From positions 1-53,988 of the IMG/VR virus record IMGVR_UViG_3300037502_002706: a stretch of DNA of 53,988 nucleotides, one strand, 5' to 3'. This DNA is from a virus. Shown piece after piece: positions 21,547 through 36,487 of the stretch. Each line of letters begins with the position of its first letter. Position 1 is the stretch's first letter. Under the pieces are notes generated by a model, which saw only the letters and a list, made by a program, of their open reading frames with translations, ran no database searches and was not told the origin of the DNA. Both the position numbers and the translations under genes were made by a program.

Positions 21547-21872
21547 GTGTTCTCCTTTCGTGCGCAGCGTTGCGCGTAATGCCATACGCTGGACACTTGT
21601 TCAAGCAGCGCGGGCGGGTGGGGTTTGGGGGCGGGGGGTGGGGGTGGCTCAGCGCCGTCCGCCGTGCAGCGCCAGCGGGCAAACCGGCCGGAGCTACTCG
21701 GGTAGATGAGCCCCGCGGTGCGCAGCTCGGCGGTGTACTGCGCGGCGGTGTTGGGCGAGCATTTGAGCTTTGAGGCCAGCTCGGCGCGGTTGGGGTTGCG
21801 CAGCTCGCGAATCAGGCGCAGCGTCTCGGCCACGCGGGGGGTGAGCTCGGGCGGCAGCGGTTCAGTAGCCAT
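21543..21872 (-). CDS. Winged-helix DNA-binding protein
   Basis: 109 residues from ATG 21872 (MATEPLPPELTPRVAETLRL). Residues about 13-65 form a winged helix: IRELRNPNRAELASKLKCSP then NTAAQYTAELRTAGLIYPSS, with a wing SGRFARWRC. A Pro-rich linker and a short C-terminal tail ending in AQRCARKENT follow. It resembles MarR/ArsR-like phage transcription factors, so it may regulate early or late transcription. Start overlaps the previous gene by 11 bp. Confidence 0.7.
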   Translation of the reverse strand: MATEPLPPELTPRVAETLRLIRELRNPNRAELASKLKCSPNTAAQYTAELRTAGLIYPSSSGRFARWRCTADGAEPPPPPAPKPHPPALLEQVSSVWHYAQRCARKENT

Positions 21873-22548
21873 GGGGTACGCTCGCGTAACGTAGGGGGTC
21901 GGGCGCGGGCTCGGCGCGGTCGTCGTAGGTGACCGTCGCGGTGTCGCCCAGGCGCCACTTGGCGCGCTGCTCGACGCGGTGCTTCTTGGTGGCCACCCGG
22001 AAGTCCGGCGCGAGCAGCTCCTGCGGGTTGAACGCGGGGTCAAAGAACCTGCATCTGTTGTTCGGCTGCAGCGCGAACTGCCCGTTGTCCAGCTTGAGCA
22101 CGTTGTAGCTCTTGTGCTCGTCGACCGACTCGCTAAAAGTGAAGTCCGGAATGCGCGGGTCCGGCGCGCAGGTGTCCAGCGTGAACAGGTACTCGCCGGG
22201 GTGCGTGCGGCGGTCCTTGCCGTAGAACTCGGCGCGCAACCCCTTGAGCAGCGGCTTGTCAATCACCTCCACGTGGTACGCCAGCGCGTCCCAGATCTGC
22301 AACACGTCCAGCGGCAGCTGGGTGTCCTCCTCGATGACGTCGTGCCAGGTGAACGCCGACACGGGCAGCTTGTCGTACAGCGCGGCGTACTGGGGGAGGT
22401 AGGTCTCAAATCGGAACGCCTCGCCCTTGAGGGCTTTGACGCTGCACCAAATGCCCTCGACCAGCTCGCCGTGGCGGGCTTGGTGGTCGTACAGGTACTC
22501 GGCGCGGACCCAGACTTTGACGGGGGGTAGGGGGCAAACGAAGCTCAT
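21862..22548 (-). CDS. Conserved phage protein of unknown function
   Basis: 228 residues; ATGA overlap at the start. Mixed alpha/beta sequence: KVWVRAEYLYDHQARHGELV, GIWCSVKALKGEAFRFETYL, PVSAFTWHDVIEEDTQLPLD, DTCAPDPRIPDFTFSESVDE and KSYNVLKLDNGQFALQPNNR with RCRFFDPAFNP. This gene type is recurrent beside replication genes in environmental and Burkholderiales phages. No catalytic signature recognised. Conserved Trp/Phe/Asp blocks imply a folded enzyme or binding protein rather than a filler. Confidence 0.7.
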   Translation of the reverse strand: MSFVCPLPPVKVWVRAEYLYDHQARHGELVEGIWCSVKALKGEAFRFETYLPQYAALYDKLPVSAFTWHDVIEEDTQLPLDVLQIWDALAYHVEVIDKPLLKGLRAEFYGKDRRTHPGEYLFTLDTCAPDPRIPDFTFSESVDEHKSYNVLKLDNGQFALQPNNRCRFFDPAFNPQELLAPDFRVATKKHRVEQRAKWRLGDTATVTYDDRAEPAPDPLRYASVPHGY

Positions 22549-28727: not shown

Positions 28728-29177
28728 ATGATAGACTCCGCCATCAACTGGAGCGCGATGACCATGCCGCAGCTGGTCGCGTTCTACAACCGACACGCCG
28801 AAAAAGCGGTGCGCCGGTTTGCCGACCGCTCCACCGCCGAGCGCCGCTGCCGCGAGGTGCTCACCGCGCTGCGTGTGCCTTCGGCCAAGATGCTGAAGCA
28901 GAAGCTCAGCGCCACCGAGTCCGCGGCCGGCGCGGCGGCCCCCCGCCCCGCCATGCGCGCCTCGCTCGCGCTGGACCGCACACTGTTGTGCGTTGAGACG
29001 GGCGAGACCTGGAAGAACGCATTCCGCATGTGGCGGGCGCACCCTGACTGGCTCACCGGGGCGCAGGTCGACCGGCTGACGCTCACGCTGTACGCGGCTG
29101 CCAAGCGCGGCGAGGCCGCCGCAGTGACAATCAATGGGCGCGCTTTCCGCCTGCTCAACGTGGCGGGGGCAGCATGA
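28728..29177 (+). CDS. Small protein with YNxxxEKxVxRFxDRxTAERR pattern
   Basis: 149 residues from ATG 28728 with AAAGGAGA upstream (a longer frame reads through the previous gene). The N-terminal part MPQLVAFYNRHAEKAVRRFA with DRSTAERRCREVLTAL is a motif found in many phage and plasmid proteins (LVxxYNxxxxKxVKRFxDRxTAxRR), often near DNA-modifying genes. The C-terminal half is helical with LTGAQVDRLTLTLYAAAKRG. Function unknown; it overlaps the hypermodification cluster by ATGA and may belong to it. Confidence 0.65.
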   Translation: MIDSAINWSAMTMPQLVAFYNRHAEKAVRRFADRSTAERRCREVLTALRVPSAKMLKQKLSATESAAGAAAPRPAMRASLALDRTLLCVETGETWKNAFRMWRAHPDWLTGAQVDRLTLTLYAAAKRGEAAAVTINGRAFRLLNVAGAA

Positions 29178-30148
29178 GCGGCACGGTCTTTACCGAACTG
29201 TCGCTAGACCGCGGCCGCGTCCGCTGGGAGCAGCACCTGGGCACGCTCACCCCGTGGGAGCTGCGCGGCGGGGTGTGGTTCAAGCGCGATGACTACTTCG
29301 CTCCGCTGGGCTACGGCGGCCCGAATGGCAGCAAGATGCGCCAGCTGATCTGGTACGTCAACCGGTTCCGCCCGGGCAAGTCGCACATCGTCACCGGGGC
29401 GAGCATTCAGAGCCCCCAGCTCAGCATGTCGGCGATTGTCGGCGCGCACTACGGGCTGCCCGCCCGGCAGGTCGTCTACAGCAAGCCCGACACCGTGCTC
29501 CGGCACGAGAACCCGCGCATAGCCTACGGGTTCGGCGCCGGGTTCGAGTACGCGAGCGGGCCGTACAACCCGATCATCCAGCGCCGGGTGACGGACCTCA
29601 CGCTGCCCGATTCGCTAGTCGTCGAGTACGGCATCACCGTGCCTCACGAGCGGTACGACGCCGACACGGTGCGCAAGTTCCACGAGGTCGGCGCCCACCA
29701 GCTGCAGAACCTGCCCCCCGAGGTGACTAAGCTGATTGTGCCCGCCGGCTCGTGCAACTCGCTGTGCAGCATACTGCTCGGGCTATCGCGTGACCCGAAG
29801 AACGTGAGCGAGCTGCTCACCATCGGCATCGGCCCCGACAAGCTGCCCTGGGTGCGCGCTCGGCTACGGCACATCGGCGTCGACCCCGAGCGGCTGCCGT
29901 TCCAGTGGGACCACCGCAGCCTGCACACCACCGGCTACAGCAAGTACAGCGACAAGTTCACTGGCGAGCAGTACGAGGGCATCGCCTTCCACCCCACCTA
30001 CGAGGCGAAGATGTGGCGCTGGCTGCGCCAGCACGACCCGCTCGGCAACGTGCTACCGCGTAACGGCTCGGCCGGGTTCTGGATCGTCGGCTCGGCCCCC
30101 AACCCCAAGGTGATTGAACCGTTCTACACACGGAAGGAACAACCATGA
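29174..30148 (+). CDS. PLP-dependent enzyme, ACC-deaminase/D-Cys desulfhydrase type, predicted DNA hypermodification
   Basis: 324 residues, close to the usual 330-340 of this fold-type II family. The PLP lysine is K54 in GGPNGSKMRQL, corresponding to the GGNKxRKL site. SIQSPQ at 77-82 matches the substrate-binding SIQSNQ element, and VPAGSCNS at 190-197 is the phosphate loop. It overlaps neighbours by ATGA on both sides and sits before a predicted amino acid:DNA transferase, kinase and hydroxymethylase, so it probably acts on an amino acid attached to DNA or on the free amino acid donor. Known thymidine hypermodification pathways use PLP decarboxylases of other fold type; this enzyme class favours beta-elimination, deamination or racemisation. 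Exact reaction unknown. Confidence 0.75.
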   Translation: MSGTVFTELSLDRGRVRWEQHLGTLTPWELRGGVWFKRDDYFAPLGYGGPNGSKMRQLIWYVNRFRPGKSHIVTGASIQSPQLSMSAIVGAHYGLPARQVVYSKPDTVLRHENPRIAYGFGAGFEYASGPYNPIIQRRVTDLTLPDSLVVEYGITVPHERYDADTVRKFHEVGAHQLQNLPPEVTKLIVPAGSCNSLCSILLGLSRDPKNVSELLTIGIGPDKLPWVRARLRHIGVDPERLPFQWDHRSLHTTGYSKYSDKFTGEQYEGIAFHPTYEAKMWRWLRQHDPLGNVLPRNGSAGFWIVGSAPNPKVIEPFYTRKEQP

Positions 30149-30330
30149 CCGTAGTTTCGACCTGGCCGCTCACCCCCGCCGAGCGCGAGCTCCGCGACGA
30201 GGTGGCGCTGCGGCTTTATGTGCAGATGCATAACAACCCCGAGACAACCTATGCCGAGGACGCTGAGGATGCATTCAGCGCCGCCAACGCATTCATCAAA
30301 GTGAGGCGCGAATGGAACAACGTGTTTTGA
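30145..30330 (+). CDS. Small protein within the modification cluster
   Basis: 61 residues (MTVVSTWPLTPAERELRDEV, ALRLYVQMHNNPETTYAEDA, ANAFIKVRREWNNVF). ATGA overlap at its start and a 19-bp overlap with the next gene. All-helical, acidic. It resembles small phage helical proteins with LRDxVALRxxxxMxxN. Unknown role, but translation coupling places it in the modification operon. Confidence 0.6.
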   Translation: MTVVSTWPLTPAERELRDEVALRLYVQMHNNPETTYAEDAEDAFSAANAFIKVRREWNNVF

Positions 30331-31328
30331 CCGATTACCGAGCGCCCGAGCACCGGCGCGAGTACTTTCACTCGCTGTACCGGCTGAACCTGCAACACGG
30401 GGTCATGCCCGGATTGGTCTACCTGTACATGCCTGCGCTGGCGCAGGAGCACGGCTGGGGTGCGGAGCAGCGGCTGTGGTTTGCCTTTCTGAACGGCATG
30501 ACGCAGAACCCCATCACCTCGCTGCGGTTGATGCACCGGCTGCCCGCGGTGCCCCCAGCGGGCGCGCCGCTCACGGGGTTTAGCGAGTGGTTCAACGCGG
30601 AGTGGGACACGCTCCAGTTTGACACCGACCGCCGGTACCAGAAGCGCGACACCGTCGACTCGATCAAGGCCTACGCCGCCGCGGTGGCCCGCCACGGCAC
30701 GCAGGAGGCAATGCTCACCGGCAAGACCTACGCCGAGCTCTGGGCGCTCGTGCGCGACGAGTACCGCTCGTTCGGCCGGCTGTCGGCGTTCAGCTACCTG
30801 GAGTACGTCTACTTGAACGGGTTCGGCGCCGACTGCGATGACTTGCTCTTCCACGACAAGAGCGGCAGCAAGTCGCACCGCAACGGTATGCTGTTCCTGC
30901 TCGGGCAGGACGCGCTGGTCTGGGACCGGCGGCAGCCCGAATCGCACAGCGGCGACTACCCCGAGTTCAAGAAGATGTGCCGCTGGCTCAACGACCAGGC
31001 CGAGGCGTACCTGCGGGAGTTCTACACCACCCGCTACCCGCACCACACGGTGAGCAAGTTCACGCTCGAGAGCAACCTGTGCACGTTCAAGAATCACTTC
31101 TTCGGTCGGCGCTACCCGGGCGTGTACGCCGACATGGCCTGGGAGCGGATACTGTGGGCAGAGGCGCGAGGCCAGGCCGAGTTCGCCGCGCCGTTCCGCC
31201 GCCTGCGCGAGGAGCTGCTGCCCGAGTGGCTGCGCGCCGAGTGCGAACACCAACCACTGACGCTGGTACAGAAGGCCGCGCTGTTCCCGCAGACCGGCTA
31301 CCCGTACCGGGGGGAGCACTTCCTGTGA
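30312..31328 (+). CDS. Predicted amino acid:DNA transferase (AADT-like), thymidine hypermodification
   Basis: 338 residues. Helical protein with REYFHSLYRLNLQHGVMPGL, EQRLWFAFLNGMTQNPITSL, WFNAEWDTLQFDTDRRYQKR and WLRAECEHQPLTLVQKAALF. The early FHxLYxxNLxHG block, the WxxFLxGxTQNPxTS block and the DTDRRY signature resemble the ADDT/aGPT-PPlase-type proteins predicted and later tested in 5-hmdU hypermodifying phages such as ViI and M6, which attach an amino acid to phosphorylated 5-hydroxymethyl-dU in DNA. Its place directly upstream of the kinase supports this. Assignment is by pattern memory; the amino acid used is unknown. Confidence 0.6.
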   Translation: MEQRVLTDYRAPEHRREYFHSLYRLNLQHGVMPGLVYLYMPALAQEHGWGAEQRLWFAFLNGMTQNPITSLRLMHRLPAVPPAGAPLTGFSEWFNAEWDTLQFDTDRRYQKRDTVDSIKAYAAAVARHGTQEAMLTGKTYAELWALVRDEYRSFGRLSAFSYLEYVYLNGFGADCDDLLFHDKSGSKSHRNGMLFLLGQDALVWDRRQPESHSGDYPEFKKMCRWLNDQAEAYLREFYTTRYPHHTVSKFTLESNLCTFKNHFFGRRYPGVYADMAWERILWAEARGQAEFAAPFRRLREELLPEWLRAECEHQPLTLVQKAALFPQTGYPYRGEHFL

Positions 31329-31906
31329 GGCACCAAGTCATCAACATCCGCGGCTGCAACGGCAGCGGCAAGACTACGATCGTGCGGCGATTCCTCGAGC
31401 GGTTGCCCGCGGTGCCGCTGGGCGGCCGGCCCGAGCGCCCGCTGGGCTACGCGGTGACCGCCAACGCCTGGGGCATCGCCGCTCCGGTGTACGTTGTGGG
31501 CTCGTACGAGAACGCCTGCGGCGGCACCGACGGCATCAAGACTCAGGACGAGATTGTTGACCGTGTGCGCCGCGCCCATGCCTGCGGGCATGTGCTGGTG
31601 GAGGGGCTGCTTATGAGCAAGAGCAGCGACGGGGGCACCTGCGCCCCGGCGTTGCGCGAGCTGGGGGGCATATTCGCCTTCCTGGACACGCCGTGGGAGG
31701 TCTGCCTCGAGCGGGTGCTCGGCCGGCGCGCCGCCGCAGGTAATGACAAGCCGTTCGACCCCGACAAGACCATGCGCACCGCGTACGACCAGTGCCACCG
31801 CTCGGCCGAGCTGCTCACTGCGGCGGGCGGCTACGACGTGCGCCGCCTGCCCTGGCAGGATCCCGTCACGCGGGTGGTCGAATGGCTGCGGGAGGCCGAG
31901 CAATGA
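31325..31906 (+). CDS. P-loop kinase, predicted 5-hydroxymethyl-dU DNA kinase
   Basis: 193 residues from GTG 31325, overlapping the previous stop as GTGA; the upstream in-frame extension is a shadow. Walker A GCNGSGKTT at residues 10-18 in VINIRGCNGSGKTTIVRRFL. Later elements are GHVLVEGLLMSKSSDGGTCA, IFAFLDTPWEVCLERVLGRR (LID/Walker B-like) and a helical end. The fold is adenylate-kinase-like. In the ViI/M6 pathways such kinases phosphorylate 5-hmdU in DNA to form the leaving group. ATGA links it to the next gene, which carries the matching helical domain. Confidence 0.75.
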   Translation: MRHQVINIRGCNGSGKTTIVRRFLERLPAVPLGGRPERPLGYAVTANAWGIAAPVYVVGSYENACGGTDGIKTQDEIVDRVRRAHACGHVLVEGLLMSKSSDGGTCAPALRELGGIFAFLDTPWEVCLERVLGRRAAAGNDKPFDPDKTMRTAYDQCHRSAELLTAAGGYDVRRLPWQDPVTRVVEWLREAEQ

Positions 31907-32817
31907 TCGGCAGCTGCCCTTTCAAAATGCCCGAGCAGGCCGACGCGGTGCGCTCGCTGGACACGTTCTTGTACTTCGTTTGGGAGCGCGAGGCCATACG
32001 CCTCGCTCGCGAGAACGACATCCCCCGCGAGCGCTGGACCGCGGACCCGGTTCTCGGCGCGCTGAAGTTCTGCAACATCCGCCGCCGGGACGACCGCGTC
32101 ACGCAGTGGGTCGTGCGGCACGTCATTCGGCCGCACTACCAGCGCGCCGACTTATGGTTCACGCTGCTCGCGGTGCGGCTCATCAACTGGCCGCCCACGC
32201 TGGCGGAGCTGCTGGAGCGCGGGGTGTTGCCCTGCAGGCCGGCGGATTTTGATGCCGACCGGTTCGTGCGTACGATTGAGGACCGCAAACGCCAGCAGCC
32301 CAAGGTGTACTCCAGCGCGTACATGGTGTACCCGACGGGCGCCGTCGGCCGTCTCAAGTCCGAGTCGCTCGCCCGTGTAATTCTGCCCGCGGCGGCGGGT
32401 GTAGCGAGCGAGGTGCACGCTGCGCTCCGCGAGCCGAGCGTAGAGCGGTTCACCGTAGCCCTGGCCAGCGCCTATGGCGTGAGCACGTTTATGTCTGGGC
32501 AGGTGGCGGCGGACCTCACCTACTCGCTCGGCCAGCTGGGCCGCGCTACCGACCTCTACACCTGGGCGCCGGTGGGCCCGGGCAGCAGCCGAGGGCTAAA
32601 CTACCTGCGCGGGCGGCCGCTGGGCGCGCAGTGGGCGCAGGCGGACTTCAACAGCGAGCTCATCGAGCTGCGGTCGGCCATCGTGCGCGAGCTACACATT
32701 ATGGACCTCACGCTGCACGACGTGCAAAACTGCCTCTGCGAGTATAGCAAATACGCGCGGGCCATGCTGGGCGACGGCGCGGCGCGCAACCTTTACCACC
32801 CTGAGACGGAGTTCTAA
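31903..32817 (+). CDS. HMUDK helical-domain-like protein
   Basis: 304 residues, ATGA overlap with the kinase. The segment FLYFVWEREAIRLARENDIP, WTADPVLGALKFCNIRRRDD then RVTQWVVRHVIRP and LWFTLLAVRLINWPPTLAEL matches the domain called 5-hmdU DNA kinase helical domain (an HhH-glycosylase-like fold) in thymidine hypermodifying phages. The C-terminal half is all helical with MDLTLHDVQNCLCEYSKYAR. It may dock the kinase on DNA or flip the base. Here it is a separate protein rather than part of the kinase chain. An aGPT-PPlase assignment is an alternative. Confidence 0.65.
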   Translation: MIGSCPFKMPEQADAVRSLDTFLYFVWEREAIRLARENDIPRERWTADPVLGALKFCNIRRRDDRVTQWVVRHVIRPHYQRADLWFTLLAVRLINWPPTLAELLERGVLPCRPADFDADRFVRTIEDRKRQQPKVYSSAYMVYPTGAVGRLKSESLARVILPAAAGVASEVHAALREPSVERFTVALASAYGVSTFMSGQVAADLTYSLGQLGRATDLYTWAPVGPGSSRGLNYLRGRPLGAQWAQADFNSELIELRSAIVRELHIMDLTLHDVQNCLCEYSKYARAMLGDGAARNLYHPETEF

Positions 32818-32820
32818 GCC

Positions 32821-33831
32821 ATGGAATTCAAAGTGCGTAACGTCAACCAGGCCTTCGGCGAGATATTCTGGAAGTTCAAAACGCTGAACTTGCAGCCCGA
32901 ACCGACGCGTAACGGCCCCGCGCTTGTGTACCCGGAGCTGGTGACCACGGTGTACGCCTGCCCGGCGGAGCGGGTGTTGTTTCACGCGGGGCGGGACTGC
33001 AACCCGGTGTTTCACCTGCTGGAGGCGGTGTGGATGCTCGCCGGACGCAACGATGTCGCATTCCTCAAGCAGTTCAACCATCGCATGGGTGACTTCAGCG
33101 ACGACGGCAAGACCTTTAACGCGGCCTACGGCCACCGTTGGCGCTCGCACTTCGGCCGCGACCAGCTGGACGAAGTGATAAGGCTGCTGCGGCGAGACCC
33201 CACCACGCGCCAGGCGGTGGTGCAGATGTGGGACGCGGCGGACCTCAGCCGCAAGACCCGCGACAAGGCCTGCAACACGCAAGTCGTCTTCGACATCCGG
33301 CAGGACCGGTTGAACATGACGGTATTCAACCGCAGCAACGACCTGTGGTGGGGCGCCTACGGCGCCAACGCGGTGCACTTTAGCATGCTGCAGGAGCTGG
33401 TCGCCGCGGCCACCGGCCACCGCATCGGCGTGTACCGCCAGGTTTCGAACAACTTGCACCTGTACACCGAGCTGTACGACGCCGCGCGCTACCTGCACTC
33501 GCCCCCCGCCGCCGACGAGTACGATCACTACTCCGCCGGGGCGGTGCGTCCCGCGCCGCTAATGCTCGGGGCGGAGTACCGGTTGTTCCTCACCGAGTGT
33601 GAGATGTTCTGCGAGGACCCATTTAACGAGCGGCTGCGGTATGCGAACCCGTTCTTCGAGCACGTGGCACGGCCCGCGGCGCTGGTGTCGCGCACTCGCC
33701 GCACGCACTCGGGCGACGGCCGCAGCTACGCCGCCAAGATTCGCGCCGAGGACTGGCGCCGGGCGGTGCTCGAGTGGATCGACCGGCGTGAAAACGCCCG
33801 CCGCTTGAGCGAGGAGGCAGTGAAAAAATAA
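32821..33831 (+). CDS. Diverged thymidylate synthase, probable dUMP hydroxymethylase
   Basis: 336 residues. TS-like blocks: FNAAYGHRWRSHFGRDQLDE (substrate contact N-x2-YG-x-RW), nucleophile region DKACNTQVVFDIRQDRLN, NRSNDLWWGAYGANAVHFSM (the R-x-ND dUMP site) and VYRQVSNNLHLYTELYDAAR. Canonical TS has PC-H and RS-D; here AC-N and RSND with WWGAYGANAVHFS match phage dUMP hydroxymethylases that make 5-hydroxymethyl-dUMP instead of dTMP. Predicted to supply 5-hmdUTP so that thymine in the genome is replaced before hypermodification. No separate hmdUMP kinase was found; the host's may be used. Confidence 0.85.
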   Translation: MEFKVRNVNQAFGEIFWKFKTLNLQPEPTRNGPALVYPELVTTVYACPAERVLFHAGRDCNPVFHLLEAVWMLAGRNDVAFLKQFNHRMGDFSDDGKTFNAAYGHRWRSHFGRDQLDEVIRLLRRDPTTRQAVVQMWDAADLSRKTRDKACNTQVVFDIRQDRLNMTVFNRSNDLWWGAYGANAVHFSMLQELVAAATGHRIGVYRQVSNNLHLYTELYDAARYLHSPPAADEYDHYSAGAVRPAPLMLGAEYRLFLTECEMFCEDPFNERLRYANPFFEHVARPAALVSRTRRTHSGDGRSYAAKIRAEDWRRAVLEWIDRRENARRLSEEAVKK

Positions 33832-33898: not shown

Positions 33899-34396
33899 GT
33901 GAAAAAATCACTTGAATTCATACTTGGTGGTGCGGAGGTCGTGCGCTACCACACCGTGCACACACTGCAGCGCGAGACCGTGGGGCACCACTCGCACGGG
34001 GTGGCCTGCTTGGCGTTGGTGCTGGACGAACACGCCAGCCGCGAGCTGCTTATGGCGGCGCTGATGCATGACCTGGCGGAGCAGCACACCGGCGACATCC
34101 CCTCCCCCGCCAAGCGCGAGTACGGCATCGGTGACCAAGTGGACCGGCTTGAGCGCCGGCTCATGGAGGAGGCCGGGCTGCGCTATCCGCGGCTAACCGC
34201 CGATGACGCCCGCACCCTCAAGCTGGCGGACATAGCGCATGGGGCGCTTTTCTGCGTGCGCGAGATGAGCCTGGGCAACCGGCGGCTCCGCGCCGTGTAC
34301 GACCGCTACATGAGCTACGCGCAGCAGATGTTGCTCAAGGGGGTGGAGTGGGACCTGTTCAACCTCATCGGGGAGATGCGCCGTGAGTGCGAATGA
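33899..34396 (+). CDS. HD-domain phosphohydrolase (YfbR-like 5'-nucleotidase)
   Basis: 165 residues from GTG 33899 with GGAGAA ten bases upstream. HD metal site: VRYHTVHTLQRETVGHHSHG, MAALMHDLAEQHTGDIPSPA (HD plus E), and DARTLKLADIAHGALF (distal D). This matches YfbR/HD-superfamily deoxynucleoside monophosphatases. In a phage that replaces thymine, such an enzyme could destroy dTMP or another competing nucleotide; that role is inference. It is placed between the TS homolog and the polymerase. Confidence 0.78.
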   Translation: MKKSLEFILGGAEVVRYHTVHTLQRETVGHHSHGVACLALVLDEHASRELLMAALMHDLAEQHTGDIPSPAKREYGIGDQVDRLERRLMEEAGLRYPRLTADDARTLKLADIAHGALFCVREMSLGNRRLRAVYDRYMSYAQQMLLKGVEWDLFNLIGEMRRECE

Positions 34397-34640
34397 GAAG
34401 CAAGTGGCCGGGCAGCACTACCGCGCCGCAATACAACACTGGGACTACGTGGTGTCGAACGACCTGGACTACTTCCAGGGGCAGATCACAAAGTACGTGA
34501 CGCGGTGGAAAAAGAAGAACGGCCTCACTGACCTGCTGAAGGCGCAGCACTTCCTCGAGAAGTACATCGAGGTCGCGCGCGCCGCGGCCGAGGACGACGG
34601 CAGCGCCCCCAGCGCGGGCTACGTGAACCAAGACCGATGA
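34383..34640 (+). CDS. DUF3310-like protein
   Basis: 85 residues from GTG 34383, 14-bp overlap. GQHYRAAIQHWDYVVSNDLD, YFQGQITKYVTRWKKKNGLT and DLLKAQHFLEKYIEVARAAA match DUF3310 (HYxxxIQxWDxxxxNxLxYxxGxxxKYxxRxxxKxGxxDLxKAxHYLEK), a small phage family sometimes called a nucleotide kinase-like protein without proof. ATGA overlap with the polymerase gene. Confidence 0.82.
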   Translation: MSANEKQVAGQHYRAAIQHWDYVVSNDLDYFQGQITKYVTRWKKKNGLTDLLKAQHFLEKYIEVARAAAEDDGSAPSAGYVNQDR

Positions 34641-36487
34641 GCACCTGGGTGTTTGACACCGAAACGCTACCCAATCGCACGCTGTTCTGCGCCCTGAACG
34701 CGGACAGCGGCGAGTGGTTCGACCTCTGGCGTCACGAGCCGGAAGCGCCGGCGCGGCTGCGCGAGTTCTTGCAGCAGCCGGACGCCACGTTCGTCGGGTT
34801 CAACAGCCGAGAGTTTGACAACGTGGTGGTTGCGGCGTTCTGCGCCGGCCGTTCCGAGTCGGAGATAAAGCGCATCGCCGACGCGATCATCAACCAGCGG
34901 CTCGCCCCTTGGGCGGCGCTGCGCCAGTTCATGCTGCCGGAGCTGAAGTTCGACTGGATCGACCTCATCGAGGTCGCGCCTTCGTTCGTCGGGCTGAAGG
35001 CCTACGGCGCGCGCATGCACATGCCCCAGCTGCAGGACATGCCGATCGAGCACGACCAGCCGCTGCCCCCGGAGCGTGAGGTGGAGCTGCTCGGCTACTG
35101 CCATAACGACGTGGAGACCACCGCGGAGCTGCTGCGGCGGCTGGACGCGGAGCTTATGCTCCGGGTGGAGATGAGCCGCCGGTACGGCGTCGACATGCGC
35201 AGCAAGTCCGACGCGCAGATGGCCGAGCAGGCCTACGTCACGAGCATGGGCCTGCGCCGGCAGGACCAGCCTATACCGCCCACGGTGCGCTACCGGCCGC
35301 CGGAGTTCCTGCGGTTTGCGGACCCCACGCTACAAGCGCTGCTCGAGCGCGTATCCGAGCACACCTTTGACGTGAACAGCAAGACCGGGCACGTGGTGCT
35401 GCCGGACTTTCTGGGCGGGGTGACGGTGCGGTTCGGCGCCGGGGAGTACCAGCTCGGCGTGGGCGGCATTCACAGCGTGCACGACCGCCAGGTGTGCTAT
35501 GTCGCCGGGGAGGACGTCATATGCGACCTGGACGCGGCGTCGTTCTATCCGAGCATCATTCTTGAGTGCGGGTTCGTGCCTGCGGCGCTCGGCCAGCCGT
35601 TCATCGACGAGTACCGCAAGATTTACGAGCGCCGCCTAGCCGCCAAGCGTTCGGGCGACAAGGTGACCGACGCCACGCTGAAGATCGCACTCAACGGCAC
35701 ATTCGGCAAGCTCGCCAGCCGGTACTCGGTGTTGTACTCGCCGGACCTGATGCTCGCGGTGACGCTCACCGGGCAGTTCACGCTGCTGATGCTAATCGAG
35801 CGGCTCGAGGCCGCCGGAGCCACCACCCTGTCAGCCAACACCGACGGCATCGCTGTGCGCTATTCTCGGCAACTGGAGAGCGAGATTCAGCGCGTGGTGG
35901 CTGAGTTCGGTGCGCTGTCGCGGTTTTCGTTCGAGTTCACGCCGTATCGCGTGTTGGCGATGAAGGACGTTAACAACTACATCGCCGTCAAGCCCGACCG
36001 CTCGCTCAAGGTCAAGGGCATCTATGCTCCGTTGTCGCTCAAGAAGAACCCCACCGCGCAGGTCGCGGCCGATGCGGTAGGGCAGTGGCTCGCGCACGGC
36101 ACCCCGCTGGAGCAGACAGTTCGCGCGGCGCCGTTCTGCGACTTCATCAGTGCGCGCAACGTCACCGGCGGCGGCGAGCAGCTCGGCCAGCGGCTGGGTC
36201 GCGTGGTGCGCTGGTATCAGAGCAACGACCCCGCGCTGGAGCCCATCCGGTACAGCAAGAACGGCAACAAAGTGCCCAAGACCGACGGCGCCCGCGCCTG
36301 CATGCAGCTGCCCGACAAGGTGGCGCACCCGGCCGACTTGGACTACGAATGGTATCGCCGCGAGGCGGTGAAGATCGCCGTCGCGGTCGGCTGCGAGCGT
36401 TACCTGAGCGCCGAGGAGCTCGCGCTCATCGCCCCACCACCCAAGCAACGCAATCAACGCAACAAGGCTGAAAATGGAACCCGGTAA
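34637..36487 (+). CDS. DNA polymerase, family B
   Basis: 616 residues. N-terminal 3'-5' exonuclease: FDTE at residues 6-9, FVGFNSREFDN near 53 and YCHNDVETT near 155. Polymerase: motif A CDLDAASFYPSIIL near 297, motif B KIALNGTFGKLASRYSV near 350, motif C SANTDGIAVRY near 400, and KVKGIY. Motif C has N-T-D in place of D-T-D; the second Asp, which binds metal with the motif A Asp, is kept, and similar NTDG forms occur in short phage family B enzymes. Compact (616 vs 800-900 for T4-like). It replicates the phage genome with the primase-helicase. Confidence 0.92.
   Translation: MSTWVFDTETLPNRTLFCALNADSGEWFDLWRHEPEAPARLREFLQQPDATFVGFNSREFDNVVVAAFCAGRSESEIKRIADAIINQRLAPWAALRQFMLPELKFDWIDLIEVAPSFVGLKAYGARMHMPQLQDMPIEHDQPLPPEREVELLGYCHNDVETTAELLRRLDAELMLRVEMSRRYGVDMRSKSDAQMAEQAYVTSMGLRRQDQPIPPTVRYRPPEFLRFADPTLQALLERVSEHTFDVNSKTGHVVLPDFLGGVTVRFGAGEYQLGVGGIHSVHDRQVCYVAGEDVICDLDAASFYPSIILECGFVPAALGQPFIDEYRKIYERRLAAKRSGDKVTDATLKIALNGTFGKLASRYSVLYSPDLMLAVTLTGQFTLLMLIERLEAAGATTLSANTDGIAVRYSRQLESEIQRVVAEFGALSRFSFEFTPYRVLAMKDVNNYIAVKPDRSLKVKGIYAPLSLKKNPTAQVAADAVGQWLAHGTPLEQTVRAAPFCDFISARNVTGGGEQLGQRLGRVVRWYQSNDPALEPIRYSKNGNKVPKTDGARACMQLPDKVAHPADLDYEWYRREAVKIAVAVGCERYLSAEELALIAPPPKQRNQRNKAENGTR

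What the first reader, a model, noticed from the sequence alone, without database searches (positions are those of the whole stretch)
29174..33831. Predicted thymidine hypermodification cluster with a new combination of enzymes
Five overlapping genes encode a fold-type II PLP enzyme, an AADT-like protein, a P-loop kinase, an HMUDK-helical-domain protein and a dUMP-hydroxymethylase-like TS. Known 5-hmdU pathways (phages M6, ViI, SP10, phiW-14) share the hydroxymethylase-kinase-transferase logic and differ in the final shaping enzyme. This set suggests phage DNA carrying an amino-acid-derived thymidine not yet described. Members are linked by ATGA or GTGA overlaps, and a small 61-residue protein is embedded.
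Basis: partly seen in the sequence, partly recalled or inferred. Interest (0 to 1): 0.92.

Follow-up and report, generated by a model that had tools for sequence, protein, structure and literature searches.

The report
Phage thymidine hypermodification cluster, ViI-like chemistry
A bacterial virus carries a compact set of genes that most likely attach an amino acid to its DNA thymidines and then trim it, disguising the DNA from host enzymes; the set matches the one used by the known phage ViI, on an M6-like gene backbone, so it is a well-supported new example and not a new chemistry.

Summary
29174-33831 is one co-directional block: fold-type II PLP enzyme, 61-aa ORF, amino acid:DNA transferase (AADT), P-loop kinase, HMUDK helical protein and thymidylate-synthase-like hydroxymethylase, supported by Pfam, structure models and conservation in dozens of IMG/VR contigs. 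A 5-hmdU-derived thymidine hypermodification pathway is well supported; a 'new combination of enzymes' and an 'undescribed' base are not. Salmonella phage ViI, whose DNA carries 5-(2-aminoethoxy)methyluridine (5-NeOmdU), has members of all five families. The window is a mosaic: core genes (kinase, helical protein, hydroxymethylase, HD hydrolase) and gene order are M6-like, but PLP enzyme and AADT group with ViI and not with M6 gp52/gp51 (100/100 tree support), and M6's radical-SAM enzyme is absent from the window and 19 relatives. Best prediction: hydroxymethylate dUMP, replicate with 5-hmdU, phosphorylate it in DNA, replace the phosphate with serine, decarboxylate with PLP, giving 5-NeOmdU. 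The serine step is inferred: the AADT is only 26% identical to ViI's, so another amino acid is possible. New member of a known kind. More unusual permutations occur in relatives (L066, L078/Pam4, a sub-clade with an extra gene).

The parts
29174..30148 (+). Fold-type II PLP enzyme; predicted decarboxylase of the amino acid attached to thymidine (ViI gp226 type)
   Evidence: 36% identical to ViI Vi01_182/orf00226, E 1e-62; model matches ACC deaminase and D-cysteine desulfhydrase; Schiff-base Lys54 in GSKxR, QSP and GSCNS phosphate loop kept in relatives
30145..30330 (+). 61-aa ORF of unknown function between PLP and AADT, overlapping both; optional
   Evidence: 63% identical homologue in L001; many relatives have a 150-215 nt gap with a small ORF, others have none
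30312..31328 (+). Amino acid:DNA transferase (AADT), predicted to replace the phosphate of 5-phosphomethyl-dU with an amino acid, most likely serine
   Evidence: PF18724 E 3.9e-15; 26% identical to ViI Vi01_199/orf00247, E 5e-26; best PDB fold match is PaMx11 gp46 glycinyltransferase 8z2n
31325..31906 (+). P-loop kinase, predicted 5-hmdU DNA kinase nucleotide-binding subunit
   Evidence: 33% identical to M6 gp54; Walker A GCNGSGKT; HMUDK_HMUD1 E 3.7e-4, below cut-off
31903..32817 (+). HMUDK helical-domain protein, predicted kinase partner
   Evidence: PF18723 E 4.3e-38; 33% identical to M6 gp55
32821..33831 (+). TS-like dUMP hydroxymethylase
   Evidence: 46% identical to M6 gp58; phrog_5131 E 7.8e-104; best PDB sequence match is CMP 5-hydroxymethylase 5b6d; Cys151, and Asn183 near the position of that enzyme's Asp, pointing to uracil
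33899..34396 (+). HD-domain 5'-deoxynucleotidase (YfbR-like), likely nucleotide-pool accessory (e.g. removing dTMP); same place as M6 gp59
   Evidence: PF12917 E 1.1e-11; 36% identical to M6 gp59
34383..34640 (+). DUF3310 small protein, syntenic with M6-like phages
   Evidence: PF11753 E 2.2e-6; conserved after the HD gene in relatives
34637..36487 (+). Phage DNA polymerase that follows the cluster, as in M6
   Evidence: phrog_1252 E 7.7e-157; M6 gp62 DNA polymerase in the same position

Best explanation
This is a 5-hmdU-based thymidine hypermodification cluster of an uncultivated tailed phage with an M6/YuA-like gene neighbourhood. Predicted order: (1) the TS-like enzyme hydroxymethylates dUMP, and after further phosphorylation 5-hmdU is put into DNA by the polymerase; (2) the P-loop kinase with its helical partner phosphorylates the hydroxymethyl group in DNA, probably at a subset of sites; (3) the AADT displaces the phosphate with an amino acid, most likely serine through its side-chain oxygen; (4) the fold-type II PLP enzyme decarboxylates it, leaving 5-(2-aminoethoxy)methyl-dU (5-NeOmdU), a positively charged base that blocks many restriction enzymes. 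Shown here: gene identities, intact motifs, conserved linkage, ViI-type AADT and PLP on an M6-type core, no radical-SAM enzyme. Inferred: reactions, amino acid, product, biological role.
For: Family hits. Both tailoring enzymes score far better with ViI than with M6: PLP 193 vs 27 bits, AADT 98 vs 26 bits; profile comparison E 1e-70 and 2e-25 with ViI against 1.6e-3 and 0.16 with M6. Core enzymes go the other way: hel 134 vs 49 bits, TS 266 vs 136, kinase 54 vs 42. Trees separate M6-type from window+ViI with 100/100 support for both tailoring proteins. Radical SAM absent in the window and 19 relatives, found in the M6 control. AADT model fits PaMx11 gp46 glycinyltransferase, probability 1.00; PLP model fits ACC deaminase and D-cysteine desulfhydrase. 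ViI has the same five families. The ViI and M6 bases and the shared hydroxymethylase-kinase-transferase logic are stated in PMC6449724 and PMC11721090.
Against: The AADT is only 26% identical to ViI's and is closer to homologues in Zemanar (37%) and Montesquieu (36%), whose amino acid is unknown, so serine is not secure. The ViI branch in the AADT tree is long (3.5 changes per column). No chemical data. The primary papers (Lee 2018, Lee 2022, Iyer 2013) are not in the library, so ViI's serine route and PLP decarboxylation rest on my own knowledge of them. ViI's second kinase HMUD2 has no counterpart here, although M6 lacks it too.
Confidence: 0.68

Rival explanations
1. Same pathway logic, but the AADT uses an amino acid other than serine (or glycine), so that after decarboxylation the base is not yet described.
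For: AADT only 26% identical to ViI's and closer to Zemanar and Montesquieu homologues of unknown substrate; the AADT family includes a glycine user, PaMx11 gp46, so substrate choice varies within the fold.
Against: The PLP enzyme, which must fit the same side chain, is close to ViI's along its full length (36%). The AADT motifs FDTDxxY, FGRLSA, GSxSxRNG and the RYxG region are shared with ViI.
Confidence: 0.2
2. An M6-type pathway ending in 5-NedU: glycine transfer, radical isomerisation, decarboxylation.
For: Core genes and gene order are M6-like; M6 gp52 is a distant homologue of the PLP enzyme (FWxxG and PxYxxK motifs aligned).
Against: No radical-SAM gene in the window or 19 relatives; AADT and PLP fall outside the M6 groups.
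Confidence: 0.03
3. The DNA carries only 5-hmdU or an amino-acid-thymidine intermediate, because the PLP enzyme is inactive or serves host metabolism.
For: The PLP fold resembles amino-acid catabolic enzymes.
Against: PLP catalytic motifs kept in relatives and the gene is linked to the AADT in most; the same pairing recurs in phage Montesquieu and in an Actinomycetota MAG contig.
Confidence: 0.07
4. The grouping is chance or the families are misassigned.
For: Two of the Pfam hits (kinase, PLP) are below curated cut-offs.
Against: Structure models, M6/ViI homology and conserved linkage.
Confidence: 0.02

Closest known systems
Salmonella phage ViI (Vi01) 5-NeOmdU pathway
   Same: Members of all five families: TS-like hydroxymethylase, HMUDK P-loop kinase (PF18748), HMUDK helical protein (PF18723), ADDT-family transferase (orf00247), fold-type II PLP enzyme (orf00226)
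   Different: In ViI the genes are scattered over a 157-kb genome and there is a second kinase (HMUD2); here they are one tight block in a ~54-kb record, and the core proteins are closer to M6
Pseudomonas phage M6 / YuA-like (Rabinowitzvirinae) 5-NedU pathway
   Same: Gene neighbourhood and order (tailoring genes, kinase, hel, TS, HD hydrolase, DNA polymerase); kinase, hel, TS and HD match M6 better than ViI
   Different: M6 gp51 (AADT) and gp52 (PLP) belong to other branches; M6 has a radical-SAM enzyme (gp53) and an Nmad5 protein (gp56), both absent here; PLP and AADT order is swapped
Pseudomonas phage PaMx11 gp46 glycinyltransferase (PDB 8z2m/8z2n)
   Same: AADT fold (Foldseek probability 1.00, TM 0.54/0.62)
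   Different: 14% identity; described as a glycinyltransferase
Glutamicibacter phage Montesquieu cluster (OV696619)
   Same: AADT (36%) next to an ACC-deaminase-like PLP enzyme (31%), two P-loop kinases, hel and TS
   Different: Kinases of the Ploopntkinase3 family; TS and hel some kilobases away; base unknown

Membership tests
5-hmdU-derived thymidine hypermodification pathway (M6/ViI class) | TS-like dUMP hydroxymethylase | tested here: met
   46% to M6 gp58; closest PDB match is a CMP hydroxymethylase; Asn at the base-recognition position
5-hmdU-derived thymidine hypermodification pathway (M6/ViI class) | 5-hmdU DNA kinase (P-loop protein plus HMUDK_hel) | tested here: met
   hel PF18723 E 4e-38; kinase 33% to M6 gp54 with Walker A; the PF18748 score itself is below cut-off
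5-hmdU-derived thymidine hypermodification pathway (M6/ViI class) | Amino acid:DNA transferase | tested here: met
   PF18724 above cut-off; fold match to PaMx11 gp46
5-hmdU-derived thymidine hypermodification pathway (M6/ViI class) | Modified thymidine in virion DNA | not testable with these tools
   Needs nucleoside LC-MS
ViI-type 5-NeOmdU sub-pathway | gp226-type PLP enzyme, full length with catalytic motifs | tested here: met
   36% over nearly the whole protein; K54 and phosphate loop intact; 100/100 split from M6 gp52
ViI-type 5-NeOmdU sub-pathway | gp247-type AADT | tested here: met
   26%, E 5e-26; same side as ViI of a 100/100 split from M6 gp51, though ViI is not its closest relative
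ViI-type 5-NeOmdU sub-pathway | Serine as transferred amino acid | not testable with these tools
   Inferred from homology only
M6-type 5-NedU sub-pathway | Radical-SAM enzyme (gp53) | tested here: not met
   No match in the window or 19 relatives; Radical_SAM family found in the M6 control
M6-type 5-NedU sub-pathway | gp51/gp52-type AADT and PLP | tested here: not met
   Profile comparison E 0.16 and 1.6e-3; trees 100/100
Fold-type II PLP enzymes (ACC deaminase / D-cysteine desulfhydrase superfamily) | Fold and Schiff-base lysine | tested here: met
   Top PDB fold matches, Foldseek probability 1.00; invariant Lys54

The most novel reading that the evidence does not exclude
The AADT of this clade transfers an amino acid other than serine or glycine, so these widespread uncultivated phages carry an aminoalkyl-thymidine not yet described.
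Probability: 0.2. Interest if true: 0.6.

Novelty: new member of a known kind. Interest (0 to 1): 0.33.

Why it matters
It suggests that the enzymes that choose the amino acid (AADT plus PLP enzyme) move between phage backbones while the 5-hmdU core stays in place, so the DNA base of a phage cannot be predicted from its relatives' backbone alone. The compact block is a convenient source for making aminoethoxy-thymidine DNA in vitro, and dozens of environmental contigs carry it.

Tried and rejected
An M6-type 5-NedU prediction was rejected (no radical SAM; AADT and PLP of the other branch). A 'new combination' was rejected because ViI has the same five families. Chance assembly was rejected. 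The primary literature (Lee 2018 PNAS, Lee 2022 NAR, Iyer 2013 NAR, Wen 2024 NAR, Hutinet 2021) was looked up but is not held. A search of bacterial and archaeal genome contigs for a host or prophage gave one Actinomycetota MAG contig only. A direct PDB sequence search with the AADT profile found nothing; only the fold search did. An extra tailoring gene inside the window's own cluster was looked for: only the 61-aa ORF is present, and its function stays unknown.

Full report
OBSERVATION. The window is an IMG/VR virus record of 53,988 bases. The claimed block exists at the stated coordinates with the stated overlaps: PLP 29174-30148, 61-aa ORF 30145-30330, AADT 30312-31328, kinase 31325-31906, helical protein 31903-32817, TS-like 32821-33831. 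Four of the five junctions overlap; the last has a 3-nt gap. An HD hydrolase, a DUF3310 protein and a DNA polymerase follow.

IDENTITIES. Pfam gives ADDT (3.9e-15), HMUDK_hel (4.3e-38) and thymidylate synthase (4.3e-23); the kinase and PLP hits are below cut-off. Both are settled otherwise: the kinase by 33% identity to M6 gp54 and a Walker A motif, the PLP enzyme by phrog_3650 and by a confident AlphaFold model whose best PDB matches are ACC deaminase and D-cysteine desulfhydrase, with the Schiff-base lysine invariant. The AADT model (pLDDT 92.3) finds as its only credible PDB match the 5-phosphomethyl-dU glycinyltransferase gp46 of phage PaMx11. The TS-like protein is closest in the PDB to CMP 5-hydroxymethylase, with asparagine near where that enzyme has aspartate, which points to dUMP.

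CONSERVATION. A scan of viral contigs returned 79 loci; most of those long enough carry PLP-AADT-kinase-hel-TS-HD-DUF3310 in this order. The main PLP and AADT motifs are present in 70 to 72 of 72 near-complete copies. The kinase comes in two types (GCNGSGKT, as here, and GTFGSGKT), so it is exchanged within the block.

WHICH PATHWAY. M6 has the same neighbourhood, but with gp51 (AADT), gp52 (PLP), gp53 (radical SAM), gp54, gp55, gp56 (Nmad5) and gp58 (TS). The window's core proteins match M6 better than ViI (hel 134 vs 49 bits; TS 266 vs 136; kinase 54 vs 42), while PLP (193 vs 27) and AADT (98 vs 26) match ViI. Profile comparisons agree, and trees of both tailoring proteins split M6-type from window+ViI with full support. 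The radical-SAM enzyme is missing from the window and 19 relatives, with M6 as positive control for the family search. ViI has all five families: hel, HMUD1 kinase and TS, ADDT and PLP. So the enzyme set is ViI's, laid on an M6-like backbone.

MECHANISM. From PMC6449724 and PMC11721090: M6 carries 5-(2-aminoethyl)-dU, ViI 5-(2-aminoethoxy)methyl-dU, both through 5-hmdU, its phosphorylation in DNA and further enzymes. From my own knowledge of Lee et al. 2022 (not held here): ViI attaches serine and a PLP enzyme decarboxylates it, whereas M6 attaches glycine, rearranges it with a radical-SAM enzyme and decarboxylates it. The absence of the radical-SAM enzyme together with ViI-type AADT and PLP therefore predicts 5-NeOmdU. 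The amino acid is the weakest step: the AADT is only 26% identical to ViI's and closer to the Zemanar and Montesquieu proteins.

NOVELTY. The abstract of Lee et al. 2022, as I recall it, already reports combinatorial permutations of these genes in viral metagenomes, so this block is a new member of a known kind.

SIDE FINDINGS. L066 combines a TET/JBP-like oxygenase, an M6-type AADT, a window-type PLP and a window-type AADT with a Ploopntkinase3-like kinase. L078 and Pseudanabaena phage Pam4 carry a PLP domain inserted in a ParB plus N6/N4 DNA methyltransferase protein. A sub-clade (L047, L048, L053, L060, L061, L065 and probably others with the same spacing) has a ~256-aa protein with no family match between PLP and AADT, with a methyltransferase-like motif. 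These are more unusual than the window itself.

Noticed in passing
L066:894-5672: Two different AADTs (M6-type and window-type) with a window-type PLP enzyme, a TET/JBP-like oxygenase and a Ploopntkinase3-like kinase: 5-hmU would be made by oxidation in DNA and two amino-acid transfers could occur.
   Followed up: partly
L078:7035-9230; L089:7786-10275 (phage Pam4): A fold-type II PLP domain inserted in the middle of a ParB plus N6/N4 DNA methyltransferase protein, suggesting PLP chemistry coupled to base methylation.
   Followed up: partly
L047:1631-2413; L048:2877-3659; L053:3723-4490; L060:2279-3058; L061:8957-9724; L065:8915-9712: A ~256-aa protein without Pfam, PHROG or PDB match between PLP and AADT, with a methyltransferase-like EPFGGCGVFSVA motif; possible extra tailoring enzyme.
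   Followed up: partly
window 30145-30330: The 61-aa ORF is optional: many relatives have a small, often unrelated ORF there and others none.
   Followed up: partly
kinase gene of loci L001-L079: The kinase within the conserved block occurs in two types (GCNGSGKT and GTFGSGKT, about 42% identical), so it is replaced independently of its neighbours.
   Followed up: no
L088 (Actinomycetota MAG contig RGDC01000007): Adjacent AADT (38%) and PLP (41%) genes in a bacterial MAG contig, probably a viral contig or prophage.
   Followed up: no
window 21862-22548 (-): 228-aa protein of phrog_3704, labelled 'ferredoxin', with no Pfam match; role unknown.
   Followed up: no
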